IMG/VR virus record: IMGVR_UViG_3300047094_001412
Coordinates: 1 to 40,505 of that record
Strand: one strand, 5' to 3'
DNA length: 40,505 nt
DNA from: a virus
The notes below the pieces were generated by a model. That model saw only the letters and a program-made list of their open reading frames with translations, made no database searches and had not been told where the DNA came from. The position numbers and the translations under genes are program-made. This document shows, piece by piece, positions 1 through 23,223 of the stretch (the first letter of the stretch is position 1; every line of letters begins with the position of its first letter).

Positions 1-441
1 TGTATGGCCTGTCCACCCAAAACAATCACCTGCTTTCCAGAACGAATATACTTTATTTTCTATTTCTAATATTTGTCCTTCTATACCATCTTCTAACATC
101 ACAACTATTCTTATAATATTGTAATCGAAATTTAAATTATGAAGTTCTCTATATCTATCATATCTATCACTGTGTTTTGGAATAAACTGGCCTGGATTGA
201 AAAGGTTGATTGCAATGCTTATGTTTTTTAAGTACTGAAAACAAGGTTTGATATTTTCATACACACCTGCTGGCATAGGATTTGGTTCAAAATAATTATA
301 AAGTGTTAAGGACTCGATAGAATGTCCTGCATCTACATATTTCTTGAGTAAATCCGATCCTCGGTATTCGGCACGTTTATAGTTTAAACTTTTGAAATCA
401 TCGATATTCCAAGCAGGGGATATATGATTAAAAATTATCAT
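1..441 (-). CDS. HxD...H oxygenase-like protein (3' end outside window)
   Basis: Open reading frame of 147 codons that runs off the left edge, so the C-terminus is missing. It starts at an ATG whose last base overlaps the TAA of the amidinotransferase gene (TAATG). The visible part aligns with the 195-residue protein at 2372-2959: both have P-G followed by an HxD pair (His90, Asp92 here), a tyrosine, N-L, a hydrophobic strand, E-G-Q or V-G-Q, and W-x-A-G-D before a second histidine (His146, almost the last visible residue). This is the facial triad layout of Fe(II)/2-oxoglutarate oxygenases of the aspartyl/asparaginyl hydroxylase-like type. The 2-oxoglutarate-binding basic residue would lie beyond the edge. 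The two proteins are paralogs in one operon and may act on successive or related substrates. Substrate unknown. Confidence 0.82.
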   Translation of the reverse strand, partial: MIIFNHISPAWNIDDFKSLNYKRAEYRGSDLLKKYVDAGHSIESLTLYNYFEPNPMPAGVYENIKPCFQYLKNISIAINLFNPGQFIPKHSDRYDRYRELHNLNFDYNIIRIVVMLEDGIEGQILEIENKVYSFWKAGDCFGWTGHT

Positions 442-1496
442 TATGAAAAGTAATCTTGTAACTCGCCGGTACGTTTTACATCTAAAGTAGCACAATGGAA
501 TCCTCCACTCATTGTCCTAGCTTGGCGGCAAGGCAATCCAATAGTTTCAATTCCGTGCTTATCTAGAATACGGCGCAATTCATTTTGTTCAATGTCGCAT
601 ATTACTAGGTTTTCATTCACGCTTAAAAAGTTTAAACCAATATATGGACTGCACGGAGCTACTCCAGTATTTGCGGCAGGCACATGTAATTGATCTCCAG
701 TAACCCAAATTTTATCCCAATCTTTAAAAATTGGTGGGTACCAATTTTCGTTTAATCTATCCGCATTAAACAACACTAATCCTGGTCGTAAAGGTAAAAC
801 AGTAGAATCAAAATGTGCAAAACTATAATATCGTTCAGCTACATGTAATTTATATCCTCTTGGTTCAAGTATACTCTTCAACCATTTAAATCCTAGCAGA
901 TTTCCGCTGTTAGATACTTGACATAATAAATCTTTTCCTAATCTTACAACATTTGGCGCATCAAAAATAATTTCTTTATCAACTAAAGTTGCTTCGGTTC
1001 TGTCTTCTAACTGATAATTATCGTCAGTTAAAATAGGTTTAGGAGCACAAATCCATTCTGTACCTTCCTGCATCCATTCGTATAAATGTTTATAGTATGC
1101 TCTAGTTTCAAAATATCTAGCCCTCATTGGACTTGGACATTCTATAATTAAATTGTCAAGGGGTAACAACAAATCTCTAGGACAGAATGTATACCACCCT
1201 GTAGTCTCCCACTCCGGGGTACTGAATTTTTTCCTATGATCTATACTATCTGGTCGTCGTACTTTAACTCCTAGAGTTTTTAGAGTATCGGACAATCTTT
1301 CTAAATCTTCGTTAGCTTCGTCTTTTATCCACTGTTCGTGTTCAATGCCGTCAAATTGTTTTATGTCGTCATACTTTTCTCCGCCATAGATAAAACTGTG
1401 TGTGCTTTTATTCATTGTAGGATGCATACTAAAATCAGCAGTTCCTATTATGATTTCCTCAAGTGGATCCCAATCATTATGTGATTGTACGGGCAT
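441..1496 (-). CDS. Glycine/inosamine-type amidinotransferase
   Basis: A 351-residue enzyme of the arginine:X amidinotransferase family (AGAT, StrB1-like), which moves an amidino group from arginine to an amine, giving a guanidino product and ornithine. The full-length pattern is present: C-P-R-D at 105-108, the segment around 118-131 with R-A-R-Y-F-E, A-P-K-P at 151-154, F-D-A-P-N with Asp179, S-F-A-H-F-D with His228 and Asp230, and G-G-F-H-C with the catalytic Cys335. All three catalytic residues expected from the family (Cys, His, Asp) are in place, so it should be active. The amine acceptor cannot be read from the sequence. The start ATG has AAAGGA about ten bases upstream and overlaps the aminotransferase gene by 20 bases, so the two are translationally coupled. 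That makes a transamination product the obvious candidate acceptor. Confidence 0.93.
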   Translation of the reverse strand: MPVQSHNDWDPLEEIIIGTADFSMHPTMNKSTHSFIYGGEKYDDIKQFDGIEHEQWIKDEANEDLERLSDTLKTLGVKVRRPDSIDHRKKFSTPEWETTGWYTFCPRDLLLPLDNLIIECPSPMRARYFETRAYYKHLYEWMQEGTEWICAPKPILTDDNYQLEDRTEATLVDKEIIFDAPNVVRLGKDLLCQVSNSGNLLGFKWLKSILEPRGYKLHVAERYYSFAHFDSTVLPLRPGLVLFNADRLNENWYPPIFKDWDKIWVTGDQLHVPAANTGVAPCSPYIGLNFLSVNENLVICDIEQNELRRILDKHGIETIGLPCRQARTMSGGFHCATLDVKRTGELQDYFS

Positions 1497-2379
1497 AATC
1501 TAGTCCTTTAATAAATTGTTTATGAAAACTTAATCTGTTAGTAGTGCTGCCACGATTGTATTGATTCCATTCTTCGCCGCCGATTCCAAACAAAACTGTT
1601 TTAGTAGGCTTTACAGATAAGACATTACAAAAATCGAGCTGTTTCTGCATGTATTTAGACGAAATATAATCTGGAGAGAAATTTTCTAGAAATTTCATAC
1701 CTAAAGAAGCACCAATTTTATTATTGTAACTTATTTTATGGTAAACAAACATAGTGTCGTCGTCGTCAATGCGTGTATATCTCATACCAATTCGGGCATA
1801 TGCTACTGGAAATGTTTTACTTAAACTAAAAGTTATGTCTGTAATACACGAATATGCAAAATCAAATTCAATATTTCTACAAATTCCAAAATATGCACAA
1901 TCTACTAGTACAGGTACATTAAGTGAATTGCATTTTCTCATCAATTCGTGATAATTGAGATGTATGTCTCCTGTATCTGCAAATGGTAGACTAATAATTA
2001 CTGCATCGTTAGGAAGAATATCGTCGTCTTCTAACCATGCCCAATTATATTCCGCTCGCCATGCCAATTTATGATACATATATTCGCCTTTAAAACATCT
2101 AAATCTGCGATTATGATTTCTTAAATAAAATTTATCAAACCCTTCAGTTGTTCCATTACTGTAACACTTAAATTGAAACTGATCCAATCCAATCAAAGTG
2201 TTAGCTGCTGTGCTACGAATCCAACGATCGTAGGTATGTAAGTATTCGTCAATAACAGTATTATTATGAACACATCGTAAGTCAAATGGCTCTCTTAAAA
2301 TTTTTAAAGTTTCTGGATCTTCGATAGCGAATGCACTACCAAAGTCTAAGCTTCTTTTATCGTTAGGTATTTTATTCAT
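1477..2379 (-). CDS. PLP-dependent aminotransferase-like protein (fold type I)
   Basis: A 300-residue protein, short for a fold-type-I aminotransferase (usually 350-430). The motif set is nonetheless recognisable: S-N-G-T-T-E-G at 74-80 for phosphate/PLP binding, V-L-V-D-C-A-Y with Asp160 to pair with the PLP ring nitrogen, and S-L-S-K-T-F with Lys188 as the Schiff-base lysine. Eight residues later A-R-I-G-M-R fits the R-x-G of class I/II enzymes, and N-R-L-S-F with Arg282 near the end is a candidate carboxylate-binding arginine. It overlaps the upstream oxygenase gene by 8 bases and the downstream amidinotransferase by 20. An aminotransferase followed by an amidinotransferase is the order of chemistry used to make guanidino groups in streptidine-type cyclitols. 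That parallel is inference; a different amine product, or use of the fold as a decarboxylase or lyase, is possible. Confidence 0.78.
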   Translation of the reverse strand: MNKIPNDKRSLDFGSAFAIEDPETLKILREPFDLRCVHNNTVIDEYLHTYDRWIRSTAANTLIGLDQFQFKCYSNGTTEGFDKFYLRNHNRRFRCFKGEYMYHKLAWRAEYNWAWLEDDDILPNDAVIISLPFADTGDIHLNYHELMRKCNSLNVPVLVDCAYFGICRNIEFDFAYSCITDITFSLSKTFPVAYARIGMRYTRIDDDDTMFVYHKISYNNKIGASLGMKFLENFSPDYISSKYMQKQLDFCNVLSVKPTKTVLFGIGGEEWNQYNRGSTTNRLSFHKQFIKGLDYARTIT

Positions 2380-2959
2380 CTAAATATGATATTTGCATAG
2401 CAATTATATCGGATTTACCAAAATTACAAGTTCCATGCCATGCAAAACTTTCCCATGTATATACATCTCCGGCAGTCCAATTTCCTAATAATTCATTTCC
2501 TATCTGTATTACTTGTCCTACGTCCCAGTCATTCATTAAAATTACAGACCTTTTAATCTTCTCAGCGTATTCAATCGTAAGATTTTTTCTATGAACGAAT
2601 GTAGCATATGTATCAAAGTGCCACACTAACATATGCCCTGGAGTAATTTTTATAAAATTATAGCTCAATGTCTTATAAGGAAATTTGTCTAATATAGTTT
2701 TTAAATTTTCATTTAATGACGGGCAGTGTGACATTAAATGCCAAGTACTTTGATCAGGAATTTTCCATTCTTTATGAATTTCTTCTAGGTCACGCTTCAT
2801 ATCAGTAGTAAAACTATCCCACGGATCGTCATCAGGTACTTCCTTAGTTTGGACAGTTTCTATCCAATCAAAATTTAAATCGTTACTGGTCCATGTACAA
2901 TCTATTCTAAATTTGACTGCATTGTATTTTGTTAAATCTTTAAACTTCTCTAAGTCCAT
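2372..2959 (-). CDS. Fe(II)/2-oxoglutarate oxygenase, aspartyl-hydroxylase-like
   Basis: A 195-residue protein with W-H-F-D (His114, Asp116) and S-F-A-W-H-G-T (His175), spaced as in the double-stranded beta-helix core of Fe(II)/2-oxoglutarate oxygenases. I-K-R-S-V at 135-139 and W-T-A-G-D at 161-165 mark the core strands. P-G-H-M before the HxD motif is typical of aspartyl/asparaginyl hydroxylase-like members. The start has AAGG eleven bases upstream and overlaps the radical SAM gene by 20 bases. It is paralogous to the truncated protein at the left edge, and the pair brackets the aminotransferase and amidinotransferase. The likely role is hydroxylation of a small molecule or a peptide side chain made by this operon. 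Family assignment is fairly firm; the substrate is unknown. Confidence 0.75.
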   Translation of the reverse strand: MDLEKFKDLTKYNAVKFRIDCTWTSNDLNFDWIETVQTKEVPDDDPWDSFTTDMKRDLEEIHKEWKIPDQSTWHLMSHCPSLNENLKTILDKFPYKTLSYNFIKITPGHMLVWHFDTYATFVHRKNLTIEYAEKIKRSVILMNDWDVGQVIQIGNELLGNWTAGDVYTWESFAWHGTCNFGKSDIIAMQISYLDE

Positions 2960-3890
2960 ATAAATGCCTTAAAATATATTCTTTATTTGGAATAGTTATA
3001 TCATTTAATAATAATGAAAATTGTGTCTTTTCCATTTCTGATAAATTTACAACATCTAATTTCTTAGGATATGTCAGTATATTGGTGTTCCAAACGTATT
3101 GATTTTGATTAATAAAATTGGCTAGATCTTTAACTCCGTGCCAATTATTGACATGTAATACTGAATTTATCTCTAAGGAAAAACTCGTCGACTTTAATTG
3201 TTCTAGGAACTTAATTATGTCAGACCATTTACTGCCTTTTCTTACTTTTTCATTTAGGTCTGCAACTCCATCAATACTTACGTAAATTTTAACGCTCTTG
3301 AATGCGTTTAAAACTAAAATTTCTTTCTCGCTCAAAAGAAAAGTTCCATTAGTATAATAAATTACTGATACATTTTCAGGATTAGATATTTCTTTGAGAA
3401 AGCGGATATGCTTGTTAGTCATTAACGGCTCTCCCCCTAAAAATAAAATTTTATCTATACTTTTAGGAAGATTTATAAACTCCGTCGTTGTTAAAATATT
3501 AATTTTTTTATTGGTAGGATTTTTAATGTTAGCCCATGTAGAGCTCCATTCTTCCCAACATCCATCGCATGCCAAGTTACATATATTGTCAAAACCAATT
3601 TCTAAAAATTTTAATTCAACTTTATTAGTAGAATATTCTTTATTAAATTTTTGTCTTAAACTTTCTTTTCCTTGATTTTCTTCAGTATAACATTTTTCGC
3701 ATTCTGGAAATCGAACTCCATTTAAAGAACCTTCTCTAAGTTTATTATATTCTTCAATATGTAAGACAGCACTTACATCTCCCGTAAAGGTAGCTATGGG
3801 TTGTTTAAATCGGCAACAAGGAAAAATACGATTTCCAGGGCGAATGTTAGTATGCACCCAAAATGCTGAACATTTACTCATGTTGGCCAT
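2940..3890 (-). CDS. Twitch-domain radical SAM protein
   Basis: A 316-residue radical SAM enzyme. The [4Fe-4S]-SAM motif C-N-L-A-C-D-G-C is at Cys104, Cys108 and Cys111, followed by L-G-G-E-P and Y-Y-T-N-G-T. Unlike the other four radical SAM proteins here, its extra cysteines lie before the core: Cys7, Cys25-Cys26 and Cys64-x2-Cys67, in the setting F-W-V-H-T-N-I-R-P. This is the N-terminal twitch arrangement known from a family of uncharacterised radical SAM proteins, often found in phage and surface-glycan loci. An alternative start is the fourth codon (ATG at 3879-3881), which would give the ATGA four-base overlap seen at other junctions in this operon; the longer start has AGAGAA just upstream. 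Function unknown. It probably oxidises or rearranges an operon intermediate. Confidence 0.88.
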   Translation of the reverse strand: MANMSKCSAFWVHTNIRPGNRIFPCCRFKQPIATFTGDVSAVLHIEEYNKLREGSLNGVRFPECEKCYTEENQGKESLRQKFNKEYSTNKVELKFLEIGFDNICNLACDGCWEEWSSTWANIKNPTNKKINILTTTEFINLPKSIDKILFLGGEPLMTNKHIRFLKEISNPENVSVIYYTNGTFLLSEKEILVLNAFKSVKIYVSIDGVADLNEKVRKGSKWSDIIKFLEQLKSTSFSLEINSVLHVNNWHGVKDLANFINQNQYVWNTNILTYPKKLDVVNLSEMEKTQFSLLLNDITIPNKEYILRHLYGLREV

Positions 3891-5188
3891 TTCTCTGTAA
3901 GTGTTTTTATTACACGATAGTTATGTTCTAGTATAGGAGTCATTGATTGATACAAATTCCGAAGTGTCGTTATAGGTAAATTATCGATAAAATCAATAAC
4001 TTTAAAAATTTTAATCAATCGCTTTTCATGATTTTCTTCTCTATCATACCCTTCATCCCAAAAATTTTCAAAGGTTTTAAAACCGTATTTTTTTAAGTAT
4101 TCTAATGTATAAGGAGGAGCAACTAGTATAAAAGGTTTATGTCTATAAATTGCGTTTAATGTTTTCTCGCTAAATGTAGAAATCGGATGACTATATTTTG
4201 TTTCGTTTATAACGGCACAAAAACAACTATCATACTCGCTATTAGGAGCATAATCGAAGGACATTTCAAAATTAGGATTTGGGATAGCAGAATTCATTCC
4301 TATGACTAAAGACCCCATATTATCTAATTTTTGTAAATTTGTTATCAACTTATTAAAAATTTTAAAATTATTTTTATGCCAGGACGATAAATCAAACCAT
4401 AATTGATTTTTTAGGGATCCGTAAATAGATTTTTTTTGATCAAAAGACATTATTGAATTTTTATCTAATAGATATGCAGCGATTAAATGTCTTACTGCTT
4501 TATATTTTCCATTAGCAGATAAAAATTTATGAGTTATTTGATTAGCAGTTCTTGGATGAATATAACTTATTGGTTTATCCAGTATTCTTTTAGCTACACT
4601 TACAACATACATATTCCTAACAGCTAAATTCATTGTTGGATATTGTTTCTGTAAATATTTTTGAACATTATAATCTCCACAATAAACAGTGACATTATTG
4701 AGATTATTTTTGTCAATAAACTGTTTTATACTGTCTAGTTCAAATGAATAAATTGTTTTTAAATTTTCTTGAGTGGATTCAAATCCTCTAATACTTGAAC
4801 CATATTTTTTGTAATATTCATTTGTACTTGCTTTTGTAGGAGGGCCTTCGAGATAGTTTTTTATTGTTGGACCTGTATTAAGATACAGATCCTCAAAGAG
4901 ATAAATGCATAGGCCTTGTGTATTAAAAATCTTAATATGATCAGGTTCGCAAATTAAATCTTCTATTTGTTTTAAAGAACCGCATCCTGTACAAACAAAA
5001 TGTGGTTTTGATTCTTCTGCCAAACATGTATCTTTAAAAATAGTATTATAAAAGTCAATAAAACTGTTTACTCCAATTACACTCAATGAAGATTCGCTGA
5101 AAATAGAACCGTTTTTTAACAGTAACCTATTTTCAATAGCAGGATTCATAAAATTTTGAAAGACTACGTGACTAAAAAACTCATCCAT
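3878..5188 (-). CDS. Unknown protein, possible glycosyltransferase-like (paralog of 5181-6560)
   Basis: A 436-residue protein I do not recognise with confidence. It aligns along its length with the neighbouring 459-residue protein. Shared marks are T-V-Y-x-G-D-Y-N near residue 170, a mid-region with L-W-F-D-L, and a strongly conserved C-terminus: S-E-K-T-L-N-A-I near 340, K-P-F-I-L-V-A-P-P near 352, and F-W-D-E-G-Y-D with E-E-N-H-E near 375-390. The E-K-T-x-x-x-I...P-F-I-x-x-x-P-P pattern resembles the nucleotide-sugar-binding part of some GT-B glycosyltransferases, so a sugar-transfer role is a guess. No membrane segment or signal peptide is visible. The gene overlaps both neighbours (8 bases upstream, 13 downstream), so it belongs to the enzyme operon. 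Confidence 0.6.
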   Translation of the reverse strand: MDEFFSHVVFQNFMNPAIENRLLLKNGSIFSESSLSVIGVNSFIDFYNTIFKDTCLAEESKPHFVCTGCGSLKQIEDLICEPDHIKIFNTQGLCIYLFEDLYLNTGPTIKNYLEGPPTKASTNEYYKKYGSSIRGFESTQENLKTIYSFELDSIKQFIDKNNLNNVTVYCGDYNVQKYLQKQYPTMNLAVRNMYVVSVAKRILDKPISYIHPRTANQITHKFLSANGKYKAVRHLIAAYLLDKNSIMSFDQKKSIYGSLKNQLWFDLSSWHKNNFKIFNKLITNLQKLDNMGSLVIGMNSAIPNPNFEMSFDYAPNSEYDSCFCAVINETKYSHPISTFSEKTLNAIYRHKPFILVAPPYTLEYLKKYGFKTFENFWDEGYDREENHEKRLIKIFKVIDFIDNLPITTLRNLYQSMTPILEHNYRVIKTLTEKWPT

Positions 5189-6560
5189 TATACTTAAACT
5201 TTGAAATATTTTGTATTATACGATAATTATGTTCTAAAATAGGTAACATCTTAATATATAGTTCTTTTAATTCGTCTATTGAAAAACTATTAATGTAATC
5301 TATAATACGAAATATTTTGATTAGACGAGATTCGTGATTTTCTTCTTGATCATAACTTTCGTCCCAAAATTCGTCAAATGTTTGTATTCCGTATGATTGC
5401 ATATATTCTAAAGTGCGTGGAGGTGCTACTAATATAAAAGGCCGAAACGATTTTATAGCATTTAATGTTTTTTCACTAAACTGCCCCATAGGGTATGCAA
5501 ATCTTGCTTCCGTTATCACCGAACAAAAGCATTGTTGATAACTACTAACTGGCACTGGTAAAGATTCTAATGCTACTTCGCTTTCTATGTTTGTATCTAT
5601 AGACAAAGAGTTTGGCATTATATTAAGTTGATGTCTTATTTTAGAATAAATTTCAGGGCAATCAGTCTTCCATTTGTCTAAATCAAACCATAAATAATTT
5701 TCTAATTTACCCCAAATTGGTATAGATTTATCTTTCCTGTCGTCAAAAATAACAAATGGCGAATCTTCAATTTTAGTTTGATACGAGCATAATGCAGACA
5801 TATTTAATAGATAGGCTGCTACTAACTGACGATAACCGTCATACCTTCTATTTCCGCACCAAAATTTGTATAATATAGTTTCCGATGACGGTGGTGTGCT
5901 ATAACTGTTATATTCGTATGATGTAAATCTACTATCCGAATGTCTAAATAGCGAAGTTAGAAATATGTCTTGAGTAGCAAGTGTCATTTCTGGATACGAA
6001 TTTTTGAAATGTTTTTCGATATTATAATCTCCAGTATACACAGTTACTTTTTTTAAGTTGTTTTTAATTATAAATTTTTTTAAATTTTCAAATTCGAAAC
6101 AATACATTTTAGAAATGTTATCATAAGTTGATTCAAATCCAACAACACTTGGTTTAATTATATTAAAAAGCTCTTCTCGAGAAGAATCAAATTTTAAAGA
6201 ATTTACAAATGGACGTTTACTATCGCTGATATCTATAAAAATAGTTTCATAAAGATATATTTCTAAACCGACTGTATTAAGATAGTTTTTGATATCTTCA
6301 GAATACATAATTTTGTCTAAGTGCGGCCAGCTTCCGCAGGCTGTAATAATTAAATAAGGAACATTATAATTTTTTAAAAAAGAATCAGAGTAATAATCTT
6401 TATAATAATCAAAAAACGTATACTTGGGGTACCTATGATTATTTGATTCAGATAAAAATTTTCCGTCATGAAATATAATACGGTTTTCTCGGTCAGGTAA
6501 TGACAAATTTTCGTATACGATTCCAAAACAACTTTCTTCTTTTGTATCAAATATTTTCAT
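5181..6560 (-). CDS. Unknown protein, possible glycosyltransferase-like (paralog of 3878-5188)
   Basis: A 459-residue partner of the next gene, probably from a tandem duplication with later divergence. It has T-V-Y-T-G-D-Y-N near residue 168, L-W-F-D-L in the middle, and the shared C-terminal block: S-E-K-T-L-N-A-I near 360, R-P-F-I-L-V-A-P-P, then F-W-D-E-S-Y-D with E-E-N-H-E near 396-405 and a final helix ending in I-L-E-H-N-Y-R. It differs from its paralog by an insertion around residues 210-275. The upstream gene overlaps by 14 bases and no clear ribosome-binding site is seen, which suggests translational coupling. The C-terminal pattern makes glycosyltransferase the best guess, but no DxD or other decisive motif is present, so I leave it as unknown. 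Confidence 0.6.
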   Translation of the reverse strand: MKIFDTKEESCFGIVYENLSLPDRENRIIFHDGKFLSESNNHRYPKYTFFDYYKDYYSDSFLKNYNVPYLIITACGSWPHLDKIMYSEDIKNYLNTVGLEIYLYETIFIDISDSKRPFVNSLKFDSSREELFNIIKPSVVGFESTYDNISKMYCFEFENLKKFIIKNNLKKVTVYTGDYNIEKHFKNSYPEMTLATQDIFLTSLFRHSDSRFTSYEYNSYSTPPSSETILYKFWCGNRRYDGYRQLVAAYLLNMSALCSYQTKIEDSPFVIFDDRKDKSIPIWGKLENYLWFDLDKWKTDCPEIYSKIRHQLNIMPNSLSIDTNIESEVALESLPVPVSSYQQCFCSVITEARFAYPMGQFSEKTLNAIKSFRPFILVAPPRTLEYMQSYGIQTFDEFWDESYDQEENHESRLIKIFRIIDYINSFSIDELKELYIKMLPILEHNYRIIQNISKFKYNG

Positions 6561-7461
6561 TTTTTATTGCGATAACATTTTCTTTAGAATGTTTTATTGA
6601 AAAAAGTTTATTGTTATTACACATATCGCAAAGATCAATGTGTTTATTAGAAGTTTCTACAAAGTGTTTTAATTCAGTTACAGTAGGATTTTTTAAATTA
6701 AGTGCTTTATAATTTAAATATTTTGACCAGTCGTTATCGTCGAGTTGATTTTTTATTTTTAAAATTTTAGGAAGAATTGCAAACCACGAACACTTGTATA
6801 ATTTAGATTCGTATAGTAAATGACAATTTGGCATCGAACATCCATTTTTATAAGATCCTTCGGGGTCATTTGTTGCAAAAGGTTTTATTTTATTTTCATT
6901 ATTTGTATAATAACAGCTATAAAAATATTCTGCGTCTGCTATTCTAACATTGAATGTGCTAGAAGAATATAATTCTACACTGTCTTGAACTACACCCCAT
7001 TTAATTGTACTCTTTTTATTCATATGATTAGTTTCGAGGAATTTCTCTAGTGTTTTATGAAATTTCTTAGCTATGATGTCGTCTGAGAACAATTTAAAAT
7101 GATTGGTGATATCAATCACGCAAGGGTGAAAAGTTTTGCAAAATTCTATTAGTTTATTCTGAAATTTATCTAGCAGTAGTCCGTTTGTACAGATTCCGAT
7201 AGTGCTATTAGGAAATTTTATTCTTATATGTTCGACAATCTTTTCTATAGAATCCCAATATAAAAATGCTTCTCCTCCCATCAGATCAAACTCATTTACA
7301 TCGGCATAATTGGAAAGATCATCGATACTTTCAAATATCGAATCTAATGTTGGATCGTGCTCGTAATTTTTTATAATGTCTGACGCCGAAGTGCATCCAT
7401 TACAGGATAAATTGCATCGATGTCCATAAAAAATTTCCACCATTGGCAGTGATATTTTCAT
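6547..7461 (-). CDS. Radical SAM protein with C-terminal SPASM/twitch-like cysteines
   Basis: A 304-residue radical SAM enzyme. C-N-L-S-C-N-G-C places the cluster ligands at Cys16, Cys20 and Cys23, very near the N-terminus. L-M-G-G-E-A at 60-65 replaces the usual G-G-E-P, and C-T-N-G follows in the SAM-binding strand. The C-terminal cysteines are Cys208, Cys213, Cys224 (in L-Y-K-C) and Cys278-x2-Cys281, the same five-cysteine layout as the three preceding radical SAM proteins, enough to hold an auxiliary Fe-S cluster. It is the most divergent of the four and lacks their I-W-P-L tail. Its start overlaps the previous stop by one base (TAATG), with AAGGT upstream. Substrate unknown; SPASM/twitch enzymes act on peptides or on sugars and cyclitols. 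Confidence 0.88.
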   Translation of the reverse strand: MKISLPMVEIFYGHRCNLSCNGCTSASDIIKNYEHDPTLDSIFESIDDLSNYADVNEFDLMGGEAFLYWDSIEKIVEHIRIKFPNSTIGICTNGLLLDKFQNKLIEFCKTFHPCVIDITNHFKLFSDDIIAKKFHKTLEKFLETNHMNKKSTIKWGVVQDSVELYSSSTFNVRIADAEYFYSCYYTNNENKIKPFATNDPEGSYKNGCSMPNCHLLYESKLYKCSWFAILPKILKIKNQLDDNDWSKYLNYKALNLKNPTVTELKHFVETSNKHIDLCDMCNNNKLFSIKHSKENVIAIKNENI

Positions 7462-8318
7462 TAAAACTTTACCTTACTTTTTGACAATGGCCAAATTGGC
7501 TTAATAATTTTTCTTTCTGCACATAGTTGACATTGTTTTATATAAGTTTGTATTTCATTAAAAAATTGTACCAGTTTATCTTCCGAATCAAATGGATCAG
7601 CGGGCACATATGAATTTAAAAGGTCTGCTCCTTCTTGTTCAAATTGAAATTGATTTGTCAGATCTGAAGCGATTGCGGTCAAATAGCATTTATATATTTT
7701 ACCTTTCATAAAAAAGTGCGATGGTCCACATTCTTGCATACAGAGGTCGTGTGCTTTAACTGGATCACTTCTTCTAAAGAAGGTTATTTTATTTTCTATT
7801 TTTTCTGTTGATGCTTTAAAAAAAACATAAGTGTTATATAGTTTTATTACATTTCGATCATTTAAAATATAATTTGTTACTGATCCATTGACAACTTTAG
7901 TTGCATTAATGAGGGCGGATATCTTGTTTATAGATAGTTCTATGCTATTTCTTAATGCAGGATCATGTACACATACATCAAAAGAAAATCCTTTGTTAAT
8001 TATTTCTATAGCAAGGTCAATATTATTCTGAATGTACGTTCCATTGGTGCTTATTCTAAAATTTTTAGTAGAAGTAAAGTATTTCGAAACTTGATTGACC
8101 CAATCAATTAATTTTGGATTTGCAAAAGGTTCGCCTCCTATTAAATTTATAGTATCTACATCTAACTTCTTACTCCATTCTATATAATAATCTTCATAAT
8201 CTTTCCAAAATAAATGACCCTTAAAATTTCTATTGTTATAAGAATCACAATTTTCACATGTTAAATTACATACATGTGTTACATGAAAAAACATTTCTTT
8301 TAAGTAAATTTTTTTCAT
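7461..8318 (-). CDS. Radical SAM protein, third of a tandem set
   Basis: A 285-residue radical SAM enzyme with C-N-L-T-C-E-N-C (Cys17, Cys21, Cys24), I-G-G-E-P-F and I-S-T-N-G-T. C-terminal cysteines are Cys193, Cys197, Cys211 (I-Y-K-C) and Cys263-x2-Cys266, an auxiliary-cluster pattern of the SPASM/twitch kind. It shares with the two upstream genes the H-D-P motif near residue 118, D-P-F-D before the last cysteines, and the C-terminal I-W-P-L-S-K. R-R-S-D-P-V-K-A-H is nearly identical to the protein at 9172-10032, so these two are the closest pair. The start overlaps the upstream stop as ATGA. The set probably arose by local duplication, giving enzymes for related positions of one substrate or subunits of one complex. 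Confidence 0.9.
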   Translation of the reverse strand: MKKIYLKEMFFHVTHVCNLTCENCDSYNNRNFKGHLFWKDYEDYYIEWSKKLDVDTINLIGGEPFANPKLIDWVNQVSKYFTSTKNFRISTNGTYIQNNIDLAIEIINKGFSFDVCVHDPALRNSIELSINKISALINATKVVNGSVTNYILNDRNVIKLYNTYVFFKASTEKIENKITFFRRSDPVKAHDLCMQECGPSHFFMKGKIYKCYLTAIASDLTNQFQFEQEGADLLNSYVPADPFDSEDKLVQFFNEIQTYIKQCQLCAERKIIKPIWPLSKSKVKF

Positions 8319-9175
8319 ACTAAGTTAGTTTTCAATTTAGATAATGGCCATATTTGTTTGACTGTGTTTGTCTCTGTACATAATCTACATTGTTCTATAG
8401 GATTTGGTAAATTTTCTATCCATTCTTTAATAATATGTTCTTCGTCGAATGGTGAACACGATTTGTATTTTAATAATAATTCTTTTGCTCGAGGTTCGAC
8501 CTCGAATTGATTACATAGTGGTTTTGAAACTGCGGTTAAAAAACATTTATATAATCTTCCTTCCATAAATGTGTAACAATATCCACACTCTCCATGAGAT
8601 TTAGATGGATCACTATCATGCATATAGATTATATTATTTTTTAAGCTACGAAGACTTTTTTTAGAAAACACATATTTTTTATCTAATTTTGCTATTTTTC
8701 GAGAGCCTATGTAAAAAATATCACAATACTCACTACTTTTTTCTTTTCTGATATTTTTAAAAATTGAAAATATTTCTTTTAAATTTTCTTCTATTTCATG
8801 AAATAAGCTAGGATCGTGTACATTAATGTCTAGCCATATATTTTGTCTTAATAACTCTTGACATTCTTTAATTTTGTGTTTTAGATATGTACCATTAGTT
8901 GCAATGTCAATTTCTTTAAGATTGGGCCATAAGGATTTTATTGACATAGTCCAATCAATTAATTTTGGATTTGTAAATGGCTCGCCGCCTATAATAGTTA
9001 AACTGTTCAGTTCTAGTTTTTTACTCCACTTTTTAAAATATGCTTCGTAATCTTTGAAATAATAATGCCCTTTAAATTTTAAATTATTATAAGTAATACA
9101 ATTTTCACATGTCAGATTACACACATTTGTTATGTATATTTGAACGTTTTCATCTAAACGATACATTGTTGTCAT
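8315..9175 (-). CDS. Radical SAM protein, second of a tandem set
   Basis: A 286-residue radical SAM enzyme with C-N-L-T-C-E-N-C (Cys19, Cys23, Cys26), I-G-G-E-P-F and A-T-N-G-T. Its first auxiliary pair is closer together than in its siblings (Cys197-x2-Cys200 rather than x3), followed by Cys211 in L-Y-K-C and Cys263-x2-Cys266. It keeps S-D-P-S, S-P-F-D and the terminal I-W-P-L-S-K of the family, but replaces F-F-R-R-S-D-P with Y-M-H-D-S-D-P, a difference in what may be a substrate-facing segment. ATGA overlaps join it to both neighbours. A later in-frame methionine (residue 4) exists, but the four-base overlap supports the start given. Function as for its paralogs is unknown. Confidence 0.9.
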   Translation of the reverse strand: MTTMYRLDENVQIYITNVCNLTCENCITYNNLKFKGHYYFKDYEAYFKKWSKKLELNSLTIIGGEPFTNPKLIDWTMSIKSLWPNLKEIDIATNGTYLKHKIKECQELLRQNIWLDINVHDPSLFHEIEENLKEIFSIFKNIRKEKSSEYCDIFYIGSRKIAKLDKKYVFSKKSLRSLKNNIIYMHDSDPSKSHGECGYCYTFMEGRLYKCFLTAVSKPLCNQFEVEPRAKELLLKYKSCSPFDEEHIIKEWIENLPNPIEQCRLCTETNTVKQIWPLSKLKTNLV

Positions 9176-10032
9176 AACTCAATCTTCTTTTTAGCCAATG
9201 GCCATATCGGTACTATTATTTCTTTTTCTGGACAAAGTTGACAAGCATCGATATGATTGTCTAACTCCCTAAAAAATCTGTCTAGATTTTCTGTTGTATC
9301 AAAAGGATCTGCAGAATTATATTTTTTTAGCAAATTAATACCGCGTGTTTCGATTTTAAATTGTGACATTAAGTCTTTAGAAATAGCAGTAAAACTACAT
9401 TTATATATTTTTCCTTTGTGAAAAACTACGTTAGGAACGCATGTACTCATGCAATATGTATGTGCTTTAACAGGGTCACTTCTTCTAAAAAATGTTGTTT
9501 TATTTTCTATTTTATACATAGAATTTGAGCGGAATACAGTGGCTTCCCAAATTCTTGCTATCTTTTTACCGTTCGCTTCAAAGATTATCGTTGTATTTGT
9601 TTTATATTTTTTAAAGTTAAAAACTGATAAAATATTTTCTAAAGTTTCTTCTATCTCATTTCTAAATGACGGATCGTGAATACTAATATCTAACCAGAAT
9701 CCTTGTTTTATAATTTCTCTTGATAAATCTATATTGTGTTTTAAGTATGTGCCATTTGTGCTTATATTAAAATTTTCTACATCTTTAAAATGTGTTTTTA
9801 ATGATTCAACCCATGTCATTAAATCAGGATTAGTATATGGTTCGCCGCCAAAGATGTTAACTTCATTTAATCGAATTTTTTTTGACCATTCGATATACAT
9901 GTCTGCGTGATCTTTCCAATAAAAATGATTTTTAAAATTTCTGTTACTATATACATCACAATTATTACACGTCAAATTACAAACATTTGTGATATGGAAC
10001 ACACCTTGTGTTCTGAAATATTTTTTTATCAT
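9172..10032 (-). CDS. Radical SAM protein, first of a tandem set
   Basis: A 286-residue radical SAM enzyme. I place the start at the ATG ending at 10032, which forms an ATGA overlap with the stop of the cupin-like gene; the reading frame is open for five more codons to a TTG, which I reject as a start. C-N-L-T-C-N-N-C gives cluster ligands Cys18, Cys22 and Cys25; F-G-G-E-P is at 61-65 and I-S-T-N-G-T at 90-95. C-terminal cysteines are Cys194, Cys198, Cys212 (I-Y-K-C) and Cys264-x2-Cys267, fitting an auxiliary cluster. The tail ends in I-W-P-L-A-K. It lies directly after the promoter-proximal cupin-like gene, and is the first enzyme of the operon. Confidence 0.9.
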   Translation of the reverse strand: MIKKYFRTQGVFHITNVCNLTCNNCDVYSNRNFKNHFYWKDHADMYIEWSKKIRLNEVNIFGGEPYTNPDLMTWVESLKTHFKDVENFNISTNGTYLKHNIDLSREIIKQGFWLDISIHDPSFRNEIEETLENILSVFNFKKYKTNTTIIFEANGKKIARIWEATVFRSNSMYKIENKTTFFRRSDPVKAHTYCMSTCVPNVVFHKGKIYKCSFTAISKDLMSQFKIETRGINLLKKYNSADPFDTTENLDRFFRELDNHIDACQLCPEKEIIVPIWPLAKKKIEL

Positions 10033-10526
10033 TTTTTGTAAAAACAAAAAATAGGAGAATCGGCATATGTTGCATTTATTTTTACAGAGTTTCCTGCCGC
10101 AATTCTTGCCGATGATAATTGATTTATAGAGATATCATTTATTGTTATTCCTGGAATCAAAGGTATAATTATTTTTTCGTTGTCGTCTATGTCTAATTTT
10201 TTTTCTGTTGTTACAGTTATTATATCTGCTTCATATATGCTCTCGTCACTCGCTGCAAATGTAACTGCATAAAAATCTTCGGCGCCGGCTGTCCACTTGG
10301 TATCAATTCCTTTAATTGGTCTAAGGTCTGCTAAAACGTCTACAAAAATATCATAATTTCCTTCATACCCATTCATTGTATATTCTATTTTAACATTACC
10401 TGCTAATAAGTATAACCATTGTATTTCCTGTCTTTCTCCAGAATTTAAATATCCTGTTACTGTGTTTGCTGTTCCATGTATAAAAGAAACAGTGAAATCT
10501 CTAGCATGTTTTTTTGATAGTTTCAT
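10029..10526 (-). CDS. Cupin-like protein, first gene of the enzyme operon
   Basis: A 165-residue, beta-rich protein without membrane segments. It is paralogous to the protein encoded just upstream: both have a W-[IL]-Y-[IL]-L-x-G strand (Trp37 here), a D-L-R followed some ten residues later by T-A-G, and I-[IL]-P-L near residue 118. The spacing suggests a double-stranded beta-helix (cupin-like) fold, but the metal-binding histidines of cupin enzymes are absent, so a binding or structural role is more likely than catalysis. It has no strong ribosome-binding site. An ATAAATA box lies 26 bases upstream of the ATG, so this is the leading gene of the transcript that includes the radical SAM genes. 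Fold assignment is tentative. Confidence 0.7.
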   Translation of the reverse strand: MKLSKKHARDFTVSFIHGTANTVTGYLNSGERQEIQWLYLLAGNVKIEYTMNGYEGNYDIFVDVLADLRPIKGIDTKWTAGAEDFYAVTFAASDESIYEADIITVTTEKKLDIDDNEKIIIPLIPGITINDISINQLSSARIAAGNSVKINATYADSPIFCFYKK

Positions 10527-10552: not shown

Positions 10553-10559
10553 TATTTAT
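10553..10559 (-). promoter_or_regulatory. T4-type late promoter box
   Basis: Reads ATAAATA on the minus strand, in the context AAGAATAAATATC. It lies in the short gap after the stop at 10562 and 26 bases before the ATG at 10526, giving a leader of about 20 bases if transcription starts in the usual place. It would drive the radical SAM/amidinotransferase operon with the late genes. Confidence 0.7.
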
Positions 10560-10561
10560 TC

Positions 10562-12468: not shown

Positions 12469-13083
12469 TTACTTAAAAGGTGGTCCGCCCACCCATAATA
12501 CTAATGATTTACGTACACCCTTTGTCACAGGAGTAACACGATGTAGTGCCCAGCTTGGAAAAAACCATGCTCTTCCTCTTTTTTGTTCTAAATTAATCGG
12601 AATGTCGCTATCGGTTTTTACTTCAAACTCTCCACCTTCAAACTCTGAAGGATCACTTAACAACAATGACATACTGAGTTTTCTTGGAACATGCCTATCC
12701 ATCATAGACATATCTGTATGCCACGTATAGTGTCCTTGATTAATCTTTTCTGAATCATATAAAGATAGCTGCATAGGCTCATACATTCCAGTTAAATCAA
12801 ATTGAAAAAACTGGCTATTTACTTCTGCAACTACTTTAGAAATAACATCCCATAATCCTGCATTACTTTCATTTAGATGCATCCATGCAATTTGACTCGT
12901 TCTTATTTCTGGTCTATTTGCTGCTGTATTGGGATCATTCTGACCACCAACAACACCATCTGCTAAATTATTCCATTCAGGCATTTGCAAGATAAGATCG
13001 ATATGTTCTGGTTTGAGAAAATCATCCCAGTATGCAACTAAATCTTTTCCTTTTGGATTTCTTGGAGGTATTGCGTAAATCAT
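12469..13083 (-). CDS. PKHD-type Fe(II)/2-oxoglutarate hydroxylase
   Basis: A 204-residue oxygenase of the prolyl-4-hydroxylase-like (PKHD/PiuC) type. W-H-T-D gives His122 and Asp124, A-L-H-R-V gives His181, and the 2-oxoglutarate-binding arginine is Arg191 in G-V-R-K-S-L. F-E-G-G-E-F at 148-153 and F-F-P-S-W at 174-178 are the usual core strands. All ligands are present, so it should be active. Members occur widely in T4-like cyanophages; their substrates are not settled. Its start overlaps the previous stop as ATGA, with GGAG upstream, and it is followed by the glycine-rich adhesin gene, which suggests a virion protein as substrate. Confidence 0.92.
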   Translation of the reverse strand: MIYAIPPRNPKGKDLVAYWDDFLKPEHIDLILQMPEWNNLADGVVGGQNDPNTAANRPEIRTSQIAWMHLNESNAGLWDVISKVVAEVNSQFFQFDLTGMYEPMQLSLYDSEKINQGHYTWHTDMSMMDRHVPRKLSMSLLLSDPSEFEGGEFEVKTDSDIPINLEQKRGRAWFFPSWALHRVTPVTKGVRKSLVLWVGGPPFK

Positions 13084-15005: not shown

Positions 15006-18000
15006 TTATATTAAAAAGTAATTTAATGCGATTGGAACTCCGATAATGCCGCCGCGGAAATCGAAAGTTGCATTCATTTGTATCGCGCCGCTAGTAATAG
15101 TTGTAATTTGATTACTATTAATCAATATGCTACCTGCTGTTACACTATTTACATTTAACGCTGCACCACCTCCACCAATTTGTGATGCAATATATGCCTT
15201 AATAGCACGTTGTGTTGGTACTACATTATCTGAGTCTGCACTAAAGAATGGATCTGTACTGAATTCAGTAATTGTTGCAGATCCGCCGCCTAATGTTACG
15301 TTACCCAAATTAAGTTCATTCAAGCCCGAAATGTTAAATGCATCCGCATTTAGTGTTGCAATACCAGTGCTTTGTTCAACTGCAAACAAATTACCTACTC
15401 TAAAGTTTCCGTCCTGGTCTGTACTTGTAAAGAATACTCTTCCACCGCCGTTTTCAACAACTTCGTCTGCCGGGTCTGGTGCTATTAAAGGTGTTCCTGG
15501 GTAGTTGCTACTAGTAAATCCGCCGGTGCCAATATCTAAGAAATCGTGTCCTGTTAATCGAACTTGCGAATATCGAATCCTTGTTTCTAAACTTACACCG
15601 TTTTCTGGTGCTTCATCTATAGAGAATGTCGGACTTATTTGGAAGAACGCCTTATAAGATCCGTCAATTTCTCCCAAGAATGTCAACACATTGACTAGCT
15701 TAAACACTCTATCTGGTAAGTGCGAGAATACAATGTTTGAACCAGCTACAGGTCTTTGTGTTAATCTTCTAATCGCAATGACACCGGTTGCTTGATAATT
15801 ATCAGCGAAACCGTCAAGGCCTGATAGATTAGCCGATCCTGTAACATACGACGATCCTCTATTTGTAAAGGTAGGATTGGCTAATACTCCGCTGCCTACT
15901 CTTACTGTGTGCGGAACATCATAAATTACACTAGGATCTGTTACAGTCATAGTAGGCACAGTATCATAACCTGACCCTGGCTCAGTAATAATAATCTGGA
16001 ACACTTTTTCGTCTGCTACAGACGCTCTGCCTTTTGCAGTCGCTCCAGTTCTAACACGCACAGTATGTGAACTAACTTGCTCACTTAGAACTGCCCAGTA
16101 CCCGTTACGGTCTGGAGTTCCAAAAGCAAGTGCATTATATCCAGCGACGACTGCTGCACTAGGTCCTGGAAGACCTCTAGCAGTCCAAACTATACCGTCT
16201 TCGCTAGTAACTACGAAAGAATAATCTTCAACTGCTGAATTATATACCGTGGCCATAAATAATCCTTGGCCATAACTGACTTTTTCGTAACCGGCCACAG
16301 AACTACCATCTGGCGATGTAGTAGTCATCGAGCTCCATGTTGTTCCGTTTAAGCTGTAAGCACCATCGTTTGAATTACTAGCTAAGGCAACAAACTTATT
16401 ATTACCATATGTCACCGTCGTCCATGTTGATGCTGCTGGCAACACTCTTGTTGCCCAGGTTTCTCCGTCAGTGCTCGAAGCTGCTACTGTAGTTCCGCTT
16501 CTTACAGCTACAAATAATCCTTTTCCATAAGTTATAGCATTGTAACCGGTAGTAGCCAATGTACCGGTTATATCCCAAGTGATTCCGTCTAAGGACACTG
16601 CGACTGTAGTCGTATCCAATGCAATTGCTACCCAGCGGCCGTTTCCGTATGTAACACTGATCCAGTCAGCTGATTCTGGCATTGTGGTTGCATCCCAATT
16701 TATGCCATCTTCTGAATATGCTGCTTGATTTGTTCCGGATGCTACTGCTACAAATATTCCGGTGTTTTGAATAGAAGAAACATCGTCTACTTGTGCCGCT
16801 GCTACTGAAGTCCAAGATTGGTTACTTGGCATAGACATACTAGTCCATGTTATACCATCGTTACTATATGCACCCGAAGCTGCTGTTCGTATAGCAACAT
16901 ATCTTCCGCTGAATCCTGTACCTACAAAATCAAATGGCACCGCTGGATTGAGTTCTTCGTCTTGTAATAATAATTCTCCGGTTATCGGATCTACGCTTGT
17001 AATAGTAATTACAATATCGTTCGCAGGACTTGCACCGCCTAAATCTGTTCCTGCTATAGTGATAGTTTGAAGACGCTCATAGCCGCTGCCGCCAGTTACT
17101 CCTGTTACTATATACTTCCAACCGTTTCTGATTACATTAAAAGTAGCAGGTGTTACATTACCGTCACCGCTGTACGTTCCAGTTACATTAATATAAGTGC
17201 CTGTAGTTTGTCCGAACACTGCATCTGTCCATTGTGAAGATGCAATACTTGTTGATACAGTAGTAGTAAATCCTGGTGAACTAAATTCTACAGTTGGTTC
17301 AATAGTATAAGTTGTAGATGCATCCGGAGACACAATAGCAGTCCCAGGAACAACATGATCCCAGCCAGCTGCACCAGTGCTAAACTTTTCTACAGTAGCT
17401 ATCTTAGTACCAGAAGAGTATGCTGTGATTCTTCCAATTTGGCCTGCACCAGTTCCTCCAGTTAATAAAACAGTCATCCCAACATACTGATCATCTGGGC
17501 TACCATCTGTTGCTGCAAGTGTTATCGAAGTTGAATCTCCAACCTGTGCTGTACTAGAAAAAGTTACGTAACCTAGACCTCCAAATTGCTCTGATTCTGC
17601 TTCGCCTTCTATTAATCGTACTTGATATACACCGTCATCTCTGAACTCATCCTGAACAGCAGCTCCGTTGGAACCACCACCAGTAATTGTCCAAGTTGCA
17701 GTAGTATGATCGATACCAGCATTGAGATATTCTGCACGTAACAATGAAGATCCGTCTGTTAAAATTTGAAACAGTTCTGGACTAAATCTAGTGATATTAT
17801 CTACAATAGCAGTATTAGGTGTTTCTGTTAAATCTACACCTTCTGCTATAGCACCAAAAGAACCATAAGAATTGTTACCGTTAGTACCTCTAATACGGCC
17901 ACCGTTTTCTGACAAGTATCCAATATGAGAATAATAAGTGAATACTGAAACTAATTCAGCACGACCGTTGTTAGTTACCCACGCACCAATACCATCGCTA

Positions 18001-23195: not shown

Positions 23196-23213
23196 TCTAT
23201 GCTCCGATTGTTG

Positions 23214-23220
23214 TATTTAT
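23214..23220 (-). promoter_or_regulatory. T4-type late promoter box
   Basis: ATAAATA on the minus strand in the context AGAAATAAATACAAC, 18 bases before the ATG of the 2729-residue fibre gene and immediately after the stop of the 1894-residue gene. Confidence 0.7.
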
Positions 23221-23223
23221 TTC

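What the first reader, a model, noticed from the sequence alone, without database searches (positions are those of the whole stretch)
1..10526. Phage operon of eleven overlapping enzyme genes with an unknown product
Eleven genes from 10526 to the left edge overlap by 1-20 bases at every junction, behind one late-type promoter. They encode five radical SAM enzymes, two HxD...H oxygenases, an aminotransferase-like and an amidinotransferase enzyme, two large unknown paralogs and a cupin-like protein. This is a complete-looking biosynthetic set, not a collection of single auxiliary genes, and I know of no described phage pathway with this content. Late expression next to the fibre genes suggests modification of a virion protein, a surface glycan or a small molecule released at lysis.
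Basis: partly seen in the sequence, partly recalled or inferred. Interest (0 to 1): 0.88.

Follow-up and report, generated by a model that had tools for sequence, protein, structure and literature searches.

The report
Phage operon for guanidino-sugar modification
A T4-like phage carries, right behind its tail-fibre genes and under the same kind of promoter, a set of enzymes that looks built to make and attach an unusual, positively charged (guanidinium-bearing) sugar, and related enzyme sets recur in many other phages, often near fibre genes.

Summary
Twelve (not eleven) genes overlap by 1-20 bases at all eleven junctions and begin 27 bases below a late-type site; all five minus-strand ATAAATA sites lie 18-31 bases before a gene, the other four before tail genes. 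The operon runs past the window in sister contigs, which add a DegT aminotransferase paired with a second amidinotransferase. The "two unknown paralogs" are predicted GT-B glycosyltransferases. Among solved structures the amidinotransferase is closest to streptomycin StrB1, about 100 bits above AGAT. Four radical SAM enzymes have the cysteine set of twitch enzymes such as BtrN. In 42 dereplicated groups the amidinotransferase lies within 8 genes of the aminotransferase (39), oxygenase (38), sugar genes (36), radical SAM genes (34); catalytic residues are kept. Best reading: oxidise, aminate, guanidylate a sugar and transfer it to a cytoplasmic acceptor, most likely a virion receptor-binding protein; lack of membrane proteins argues against O-antigen. 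Product and target are inferred. Not unprecedented: Campylobacter phage clusters combine radical SAM genes with an amidinotransferase (one also with an aminotransferase), and pelagimyophage host-recognition clusters hold fibres, glycosyltransferases and radical SAM cassettes. New variant of a known kind.

The parts
10553..10560 (-). late-type promoter site AATAAATA, 27 nt before the first operon gene
   Evidence: one of 5 of 5 minus-strand ATAAATA sites, all intergenic and just before genes
   Evidence: ORF; no Pfam or PHROGs match at E 0.1
9172..10032 (-). g2, radical SAM enzyme, CX3CX2C plus four C-terminal Cys (twitch-type)
8315..9175 (-). g3, radical SAM enzyme, same family as g2 and g4
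7461..8318 (-). g4, radical SAM enzyme, same family
6547..7461 (-). g5, radical SAM enzyme, diverged member of the same family
5181..6560 (-). g6, predicted GT-B glycosyltransferase (459 aa)
   Evidence: paralog of g7 (37% identity); fold inferred from the g7 model
3878..5188 (-). g7, predicted GT-B glycosyltransferase (436 aa)
   Evidence: model pLDDT 82; best Z 10.4 to T4 beta-glucosyltransferase, most rows glycosyltransferases; Foldseek itself weak (best E 0.008)
2940..3890 (-). g8, radical SAM enzyme of the 'twitch domain-containing' family NF033640
   Evidence: 208.7 bits against a cut-off of 170
2372..2959 (-). g9, HxD...H Fe(II)/2OG oxygenase-like protein
   Evidence: H114, D116, H175 in 81 of 81 family members of at least 140 aa; no Pfam match
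1477..2379 (-). g10, PLP-dependent aminotransferase, class I/II fold
   Evidence: model pLDDT 88.8; Z 22.9; K188 in 49 of 49
441..1496 (-). g11, L-arginine:X amidinotransferase, StrB1-like
   Evidence: E 5e-88 to inosamine-phosphate amidinotransferase 1bwd; H228, D230, C335 in 40 of 40
1..441 (-). g12, second HxD...H oxygenase-like protein, cut by the window edge (170 aa in L003)
   Evidence: 30% identical to g9 over 108 aa
11460..12452 (-). neighbour: glycine-rich tail-fibre adhesin (Gp38-like), possible acceptor
   Evidence: PF05268 33.7 bits against a cut-off of 25
15006..28908 (-). neighbours: two tail-fibre genes (15006-23195 and 23224-28908), possible acceptors, each behind its own ATAAATA site
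   Evidence: PHROGs tail fibre matches (E 1e-144 and 2e-168)

Best explanation
A cassette under a late-type promoter, in the receptor-binding region of a T4-like phage, makes a guanidinylated amino-sugar (or cyclitol) and transfers it to a cytoplasmic acceptor. Proposed steps: a twitch radical SAM enzyme and/or an HxD...H oxygenase oxidises a hydroxyl of the sugar to a ketone; the PLP aminotransferase g10 turns it into an amine; the StrB1-like amidinotransferase g11 moves the amidino group of arginine onto that amine, leaving a guanidinium group; GT-B glycosyltransferases g6/g7 attach or extend the glycan. The DegT aminotransferase plus second amidinotransferase further along would do this at a second position, as in streptidine. 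The most likely acceptor is a virion receptor-binding protein (fibre or Gp38-like adhesin). Shown: gene families, conserved catalytic residues, conserved linkage, late-type promoter site, predicted GT-B fold. Inferred: substrate, order of steps, product, timing and acceptor.
For: AMD: phmmer 299 bits to StrB1 against 193-199 to AGAT entries, 197 to SxtG and 206 to HsvA. AT: class I/II aminotransferase fold, Z 22.9, rmsd 3.6, 291 aligned, with an invariant PLP lysine. g2-g5 family: 3+4 invariant Cys in the 16-row alignment (49-50 of 50 in the wider set); BtrN has four Cys on its auxiliary cluster (PMC9012708 passages) and is among the profile matches (E 2e-7). GT-B: best rows T4 BGT Z 10.4, fucosyltransferase 10.0, exostosin 9.9, TarM 9.8. 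Linkage: of 42 dereplicated AMD groups, AT 39, OX 38, sugar genes 36, radical SAM 34, fibre-like genes 17 within 8 genes; from the AMD scan alone, 20 intact groups: AT 18, OX 17, rSAM 14 within 5 genes. Sugar genes are 82 of 772 near genes and 3 of 340 far genes (Fisher 9e-11). Late-type site before the operon as before four tail genes. No obvious membrane proteins: highest 19-residue hydropathy 1.71 among the 21 proteins examined, and 3 of 405 same-strand near genes of at least 100 aa have two or more TM-like segments. The isolate S-SCSM2R has genes annotated as glycosyltransferases, a DegT gene (57% identity), radical SAM, oxygenase (46%) and amidinotransferase (56%) side by side. Campylobacter phage WX1 has amidinotransferase, radical SAM genes (one annotated 'BtrN protein') and a class I/II aminotransferase (PF00155) in one stretch.
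Against: No product, substrate or acceptor is known. BtrN is not the best radical SAM match (17 rows rank above it), so dehydrogenase chemistry is a guess; twitch enzymes also do other reactions. Foldseek gave no GT-B match below E 0.001, and Z near 10 is only moderately above the usual best Z of 7-8 stated. No nucleotide-sugar or inositol synthesis gene was recognised among the proteins scanned (not every ORF was scanned). AT is nearest to structures of amino-acid enzymes, not to sugar aminotransferases. Six of 42 AMD groups have no recognised sugar gene within 8 genes. 18 of 42 groups have no late-type site before any same-strand gene of the locus. Three of the genes annotated as glycosyltransferases in S-SCSM2R and CP220 that I scanned have no Pfam match at E 0.01. 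The published view of glycosyltransferases in this region is host O-chain modification (PMC7029224).
Confidence: 0.42

Rival explanations
1. The cassette alters the host surface: the guanidino-sugar is added to LPS or O-antigen late in infection, to block superinfection or to keep progeny from sticking to debris.
For: Authors of the pelagimyophage study propose O-chain modification for glycosyltransferases of this region (PMC7029224, passages). Epimerase-like genes lie near 15 and UDP-glucose-dehydrogenase-like genes near 10 of 42 groups.
Against: No flippase-, ligase- or GtrA-like membrane protein in the cluster by a simple hydropathy scan: none strong among 21 proteins, and 3 of 405 neighbours with two or more TM-like segments; such proteins elsewhere in the phage or host were not looked for. 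The late-type promoter is shared with tail genes.
Confidence: 0.2
2. Direct protein modification without a sugar: radical SAM and HxD...H enzymes act on side chains of fibre proteins or on a phage peptide (RiPP-like), and AT plus AMD build a guanidino side chain.
For: g8 is weakly like the peptide-modifying radical SAM enzyme YydG (E 1e-5), and many of the NCBIfam hits of the radical SAM genes are peptide maturases, though far below cut-off (only NF033640 for g8 is above it). AT is nearest to amino-acid enzymes. Fibre-like genes are near 17 of 42 groups.
Against: GT-B-like X genes lie near 31 of 42 groups and some sugar gene near 36; AMD is closest to an enzyme that acts on an amino-cyclitol. 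No precursor peptide was identified (none was specifically searched for).
Confidence: 0.17
3. A diffusible small molecule, for example an aminoglycoside- or guanidine-like compound, is made in the infected cell.
For: StrB1-like AMD, AT and twitch radical SAM enzymes are aminoglycoside-type parts; two AT/AMD pairs are present.
Against: No cyclase, inositol-phosphate synthase, exporter or resistance gene was recognised among the scanned proteins (none was specifically searched for); content varies from phage to phage.
Confidence: 0.08
4. DNA hypermodification: the enzymes build and attach a guanidino-sugar to phage DNA.
For: The best structural match of g7 is T4 beta-glucosyltransferase (Z 10.4, tied with fucosyltransferase and exostosin). 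A QueE-like gene, typical of base modification, recurs in the flanks of related loci.
Against: Late-type promoter and position among tail genes rather than replication genes.
Confidence: 0.07
5. Unlinked auxiliary metabolic genes: the amidinotransferase is a GATM-type gene of creatine or amino-acid metabolism and the others are there for other reasons.
For: A 2024 ocean-virus survey discusses viral GAMT as a creatine gene, with GATM as the preceding step (PMC11360552, passages); a lake-virus study lists a viral 'glycine amidinotransferase', K00613, under amino-acid metabolism (PMC8226683, passage).
Against: StrB1 scores about 100 bits above AGAT; tight linkage to AT in 39 of 42 groups.
Confidence: 0.03

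Closest known systems
Campylobacter phage CP220/CPt10 radical SAM + amidinotransferase cluster (Timms et al. 2010), and its counterpart in phage WX1
   Same: Five radical SAM genes and one amidinotransferase in an interchangeable module; CP220 also has two genes noted as nucleotide-diphospho-sugar transferase-like; WX1 has an aminotransferase (PF00155) and a radical SAM gene annotated 'BtrN protein' in the stretch
   Different: Amidinotransferase only 27-31% identical to g11; the g9 and g10 profiles matched nothing in the CP220 and WX1 stretches printed, so WX1's aminotransferase is of another subgroup; the passages read propose no pathway
Host recognition cluster (HRC) of pelagimyophages/cyanomyophages
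   Same: Variable island in the structural region, between VrlC and the neck gene gp14, with tail fibres, glycosyltransferases and radical SAM cassettes; here fibre and Gp38-like genes on one side, T4 gp15 and a head-tail adaptor on the other
   Different: The passages read name no aminotransferase-amidinotransferase pathway; host and taxonomy of this phage are unknown
Streptidine / 2-deoxystreptamine biosynthesis (StrB1, BtrN, aminotransferases)
   Same: Oxidise, aminate, amidinate logic; StrB1 is the nearest solved amidinotransferase; twitch-type radical SAM enzymes
   Different: No cyclitol synthase recognised; aminotransferase g10 of class I/II rather than DegT (the DegT one belongs to the second pair)
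Synechococcus phage S-SCSM2R gene block 228-236 kb
   Same: DegT, radical SAM, oxygenase, amidinotransferase among genes annotated as glycosyltransferases; 46-57% identity to g12, DegT and the second amidinotransferase of L003
   Different: No g10-type aminotransferase or g6/g7-type gene recognised in the stretch printed

Membership tests
StrB1/AGAT amidinotransferases | sequence homology over the full length | tested here: met
   residues 3-349 of 351, E 5e-88 to 1bwd; Pfam ADI match below cut-off
StrB1/AGAT amidinotransferases | catalytic Cys, His and Asp (identity of the catalytic residues recalled) | tested here: met
   H228, D230, C335 in 40 of 40 proteins of at least 300 aa; position 179 D in 34, E in 6
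StrB1 (amino-cyclitol type) rather than AGAT | amidinates an amino-cyclitol | not testable with these tools
   only similarity: 299 against 193-199 bits
class I/II aminotransferases (PLP fold type I) | fold | tested here: met
   Z 22.9, rmsd 3.6, 291 aligned
class I/II aminotransferases (PLP fold type I) | PLP lysine | tested here: met
   K188 in 49 of 49 proteins of at least 260 aa
class I/II aminotransferases (PLP fold type I) | sequence match to a curated family or solved member | tested here: inconclusive
   no Pfam match at E 0.1, no PDB sequence match of the profile at E 0.01
BtrN-type twitch radical SAM dehydrogenases | CX3CX2C and an auxiliary cluster with four Cys | tested here: met
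   C17, C21, C24, C193, C211, C263, C266; four-Cys auxiliary cluster of BtrN from PMC9012708; cluster binding itself not tested
BtrN-type twitch radical SAM dehydrogenases | closest relative is BtrN / alcohol oxidation | tested here: inconclusive
   BtrN matched at E 2e-7 over the core only, and 17 rows rank above it; activity not testable
GT-B glycosyltransferases | two-domain GT-B fold | tested here: met
   Z 10.4 (rmsd 5.3, 265 aligned) to T4 BGT, most of the 50 rows glycosyltransferases; Foldseek alone weak; g7 only was folded
GT-B glycosyltransferases | sugar-nucleotide-dependent transfer | not testable with these tools
   E341 in 51 of 53 (D in 2) and K342 in 53 of 53 is suggestive only
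host recognition cluster of T4-like marine phages | variable island between baseplate/fibre and neck genes with fibres, glycosyltransferases, radical SAM genes | tested here: met
   (fibres, Gp38-like, T4 gp15, head-tail adaptor); VrlC and gp14 themselves were not looked for
gtr-type or Wzx/Wzy O-antigen modification | membrane flippase, polymerase or ligase in the cluster | tested here: not met
   hydropathy scan of 21 proteins and of 405 neighbours; genes outside the cluster not tested
creatine-type auxiliary genes (GATM + GAMT) | guanidinoacetate methyltransferase next to the amidinotransferase | not tested
   no GAMT-specific search was made

The most novel reading that the evidence does not exclude
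Phages encode a streptidine-like chemistry: two aminotransferase/amidinotransferase pairs put two guanidinium groups on one sugar, which glycosyltransferases attach to the tip adhesin or fibres, giving a cationic glycan at the receptor-binding end of the virion. This would be a kind of virion glycan that I know of nowhere (recalled; the paper searches made here were not aimed at every wording).
Probability: 0.2. Interest if true: 0.88.

Novelty: new variant of a known kind. Interest (0 to 1): 0.64.

Why it matters
Radical SAM genes, glycosyltransferases and 'glycine amidinotransferase' are reported in aquatic phages as separate auxiliary genes (passages). If they form one late pathway that decorates receptor-binding proteins, such annotations change meaning, and it becomes testable whether phages tune adsorption with small cationic glycans. 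It would also be an aminoglycoside-type chemistry that evolved, or was kept, for use on a virus.

Tried and rejected
Sequence-only searches failed for the unknowns: g6 had no match in 50,697 phage records at E 1e-5; g6 and g7 had no Pfam or PHROGs match better than E 0.04; the aminotransferase profile had no PDB sequence match. Predicted folds placed both. T4 consensus TATAAATA: no exact site (9.3 expected) and one-mismatch sites at chance level; the form ATAAATA was then found to be restricted on the minus strand to promoter positions. Sigma-70 and terminator scans were at chance level. A cellular source of the aminotransferase: 1 weak match (E 2.8e-4) in 398 genomes of one phylum; the only genome contigs match of the amidinotransferase (a pattern scan that finds close relatives) is a contig with phage structural-looking genes binned into a SAR116 MAG. 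Whether entry 7wzv, the best radical SAM match, is the aminoglycoside enzyme AprD4 (my recollection) could not be confirmed. Two counts (probes GTd, GTe, and so 'any sugar gene') were wrong because the probes hit a radical SAM and the amidinotransferase gene, and probe GTa hit an oxygenase-annotated gene; one search replaces them. A seeming fixed order R8-OX-AT-AMD is not general: strict in 4 of 20 dereplicated groups.

Limits of the counts: the aminotransferase scan kept the best 80 of 319 relatives, so the 42 groups lean to near relatives, and loci fetched through the aminotransferase have it by construction; the 20 groups do not. Dereplication at 95% gave 56 groups from 154 loci, of which 42 hold an amidinotransferase and 10 only an aminotransferase; the other 4 were left out, and loci L001 and L075-L077 before that. 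In one search, 2 of 22 groups with a cut amidinotransferase were dropped. In one search proteins below a length limit (300, 260, 240, 240, 140, 330 aa for AMD, AT, R8, R, OX, X) were dropped. ORFs were called by a simple longest-ORF rule of mine, with some 5'-extended starts, so the AT-AMD overlaps printed are upper values. Many contigs are short, so 'within 8 genes' is often truncated. Alignments were subsets: 22 of 23 aminotransferases (A1), 14 of 33 X proteins (A3), A4 window g8 plus 12 of 50 R8 proteins, A5 window g2-g5 plus 12 of 22 R proteins.


Full report
What is there. The window is a whole 40,505-base IMG/VR record. Its annotated-size genes run on the minus strand. From 10526 down to the left edge lie twelve genes that overlap at all eleven junctions by 1-20 bases. 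Upstream are a Gp38-like tail-fibre adhesin (PF05268), a 2OG-Fe(II) oxygenase gene, an endosialidase-chaperone-bearing fibre protein, and long tail-fibre and baseplate-wedge-like proteins. Three sister contigs (L002-L004; g6 and g11 proteins 100% identical) extend leftwards: g12 is completed (170 aa), then come a 302-aa protein that looks SGNH-like to me (no Pfam match; no PHROGs match), a 237-aa protein of PHROG 7084, two genes on the other strand (a 2OG-Fe(II) oxygenase, PF13640, and a 92-aa ORF), then a DegT-family aminotransferase (PF01041) overlapping a second amidinotransferase (35% identical to g11), a NUDIX gene, and T4-type structural genes: tail sheath stabiliser gp15, a virion protein, a head-tail adaptor.

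Promoter. On the minus strand the heptamer ATAAATA occurs five times, always in the few intergenic bases (232 of 40,229 nt) and 18-31 nt before a gene: two tail-fibre genes, two baseplate-wedge-like genes and g1. A first-order expectation would be 16.7 sites; the two plus-strand copies are inside genes. The enzyme operon is thus wired like the tail genes. In L069 a site of the same type precedes a gene six positions after the amidinotransferase, which by the order is the DegT gene. Of the 42 amidinotransferase groups 24 have such a site before some same-strand gene of the locus and 18 have none, so late wiring is indicated for this phage, not for all.

Enzymes. g11 matches inosamine-phosphate amidinotransferase StrB1 (1bwd) at E 5e-88 and 299 bits, about 100 bits above AGAT entries. 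g10 has no sequence match but folds with confidence (pLDDT 88.8) as a class I/II aminotransferase (Z 22.9); its lysine is invariant. g2-g5 form one radical SAM family with seven invariant cysteines, three for the radical cluster and four in the spacing CX17C...CX2C. A single auxiliary cluster with four cysteines is what the twitch enzyme BtrN has, while MoaA has three (PMC9012708, passages). BtrN oxidises an amino-cyclitol to a ketone (same passages); in butirosin an aminotransferase follows (recalled). BtrN appears among the profile matches (E 2e-7) but 17 rows rank above it. g8 belongs to NF033640, twitch domain-containing radical SAM proteins, above cut-off. g7 folds (pLDDT 82) as a GT-B glycosyltransferase: the best rows of the second-look alignment are T4 beta-glucosyltransferase, fucosyltransferase, exostosin, TarM and other glycosyltransferases, Z 10.4 downward, although Foldseek's own E-values were weak (best 0.008). 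g6 is its paralog and was not folded.

Comparison with other phages. A scan with g11 gave 65 loci; a scan with the aminotransferase profile gave 319 relatives, best 80 kept. In 42 dereplicated groups with an amidinotransferase, an aminotransferase lies within 8 genes in 39, an oxygenase of the g9/g12 family in 38, a radical SAM gene in 34, a sugar gene (GT-B-like X, epimerase, UDP-glucose-dehydrogenase-like, group-1 glycosyltransferase, or relatives of CP220 and S-SCSM2R transferases) in 36, all of these kinds together in 31, and a fibre-like gene in 17. From the g11 scan alone, which does not presuppose the aminotransferase, 18 of 20 intact groups have it within 5 genes. Sugar genes make up 82 of 772 near genes and 3 of 340 far genes, oxygenases 77 and 5, radical SAM genes 89 and 21 (one-sided Fisher 9e-11, 2e-8, 0.003; genes are not independent, so these are guides). 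Order and content vary: the strict order radical SAM-oxygenase-aminotransferase-amidinotransferase is in 4 of 20. L062 has the amidinotransferase with none of the other families within 8 genes, and an aminotransferase elsewhere on that 340-kb contig; L066 likewise has none, but its amidinotransferase sits at the contig end. Catalytic residues are kept: amidinotransferase H, D and C 40 of 40 (position 179 D in 34, E in 6); aminotransferase K 49 of 49; oxygenase H, D, H 81 of 81; radical SAM cysteines 71 of 72 (g8 family) and 49-50 of 50 (g2 family) (full-length proteins only).

Mechanism. Committed reading: oxidise, aminate, guanidylate, transfer. Which of the radical SAM and oxygenase genes makes the ketone is open; spare radical SAM genes may deoxygenate, epimerise or oxidise other positions. 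Acceptor: virion protein rather than host envelope, because the genes stand behind a late-type site beside receptor-binding genes and because no obvious membrane protein is among them (a simple hydropathy scan). The published proposal for glycosyltransferases of this region is host O-chain modification (PMC7029224, passages); that remains the main rival. Peptide or side-chain modification without sugar, a diffusible product and DNA modification are ranked below.

Known relatives. Timms et al. 2010 (PMC2853527, passages) found in Campylobacter phages CP220 and CPt10 interchangeable clusters of 12 and 10 genes, each with five radical SAM genes and a putative glycine amidinotransferase; CP220's record adds two genes noted as nucleotide-diphospho-sugar transferase-like (one of them, scanned, has no Pfam match). 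The counterpart in phage WX1 also holds a class I/II aminotransferase (PF00155) and a radical SAM/SPASM gene annotated 'BtrN protein'. So the combination is not unheard of, though the passages read propose no pathway. The pelagimyophage paper names the place: a host recognition cluster between VrlC and gp14 with fibres, glycosyltransferases and radical SAM cassettes. A 2024 survey discusses viral GAMT, with GATM as the step before it, as creatine synthesis (PMC11360552, passages); g11's likeness to StrB1 points elsewhere for this gene. A phage survey of the Tasman Sea found radical SAM and glycosyltransferase genes enriched together (PMC7150976, passages). Searches for radical SAM + amidinotransferase + phage, for a guanidin* pathway, for amidinotransferase in virus papers (20 of 3,530 listed), for inosamine + phage and for radical SAM + fibre + glycosyltransferase showed me, apart from the papers just named, no title or abstract start that describes such a pathway; the library holds open-licence papers only.

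Verdict. A real, recurrent enzyme cassette with a late-type promoter; product most likely a guanidino-sugar; target most likely a virion protein, but unproven. New variant of a known kind of region.

Noticed in passing
window 10553, 23214, 28939, 34321, 38112 (minus strand): ATAAATA is confined to late-type promoter positions on the coding strand and depleted elsewhere (5 seen, 16.7 expected), as if stray copies were selected against.
   Followed up: yes
window 12469-13083 and 13080-13664: Two small genes between the Gp38-like adhesin and a fibre gene: the first is a 2OG-Fe(II) oxygenase (PF13640), the second has an HxD by eye, no Pfam match and a PHROGs match labelled ferrochelatase. Fibre hydroxylation may be a separate activity.
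   Followed up: partly
window 1-10526 against the rest: The operon has 30.0% G+C, the rest of the window 37.2%, as might be expected for an exchanged module.
   Followed up: no
L041:14282-15379; same cluster in 11 loci: An S-adenosylmethionine synthetase gene (all three Pfam domains) recurs near the cassette in 11 loci, which would suit SAM-hungry radical enzymes.
   Followed up: partly
L018:13315-14211; same cluster in 23 loci: A QueE-like gene (PHROG 2076, E 5e-52) recurs within ten genes of the amidinotransferase in 23 loci, a hint that some of these phages also make 7-deazaguanine DNA modifications.
   Followed up: partly
L072-L074: A different, larger island with four or five radical SAM genes of the g8 family and several GT-B-like genes up to 736 aa, without the amidinotransferase in the stretch held.
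   Followed up: no
L078 (JADHOR010000039.1): A phage-like contig with this cassette is binned into a SAR116 MAG, a hint to the host or a binning artefact.
   Followed up: partly
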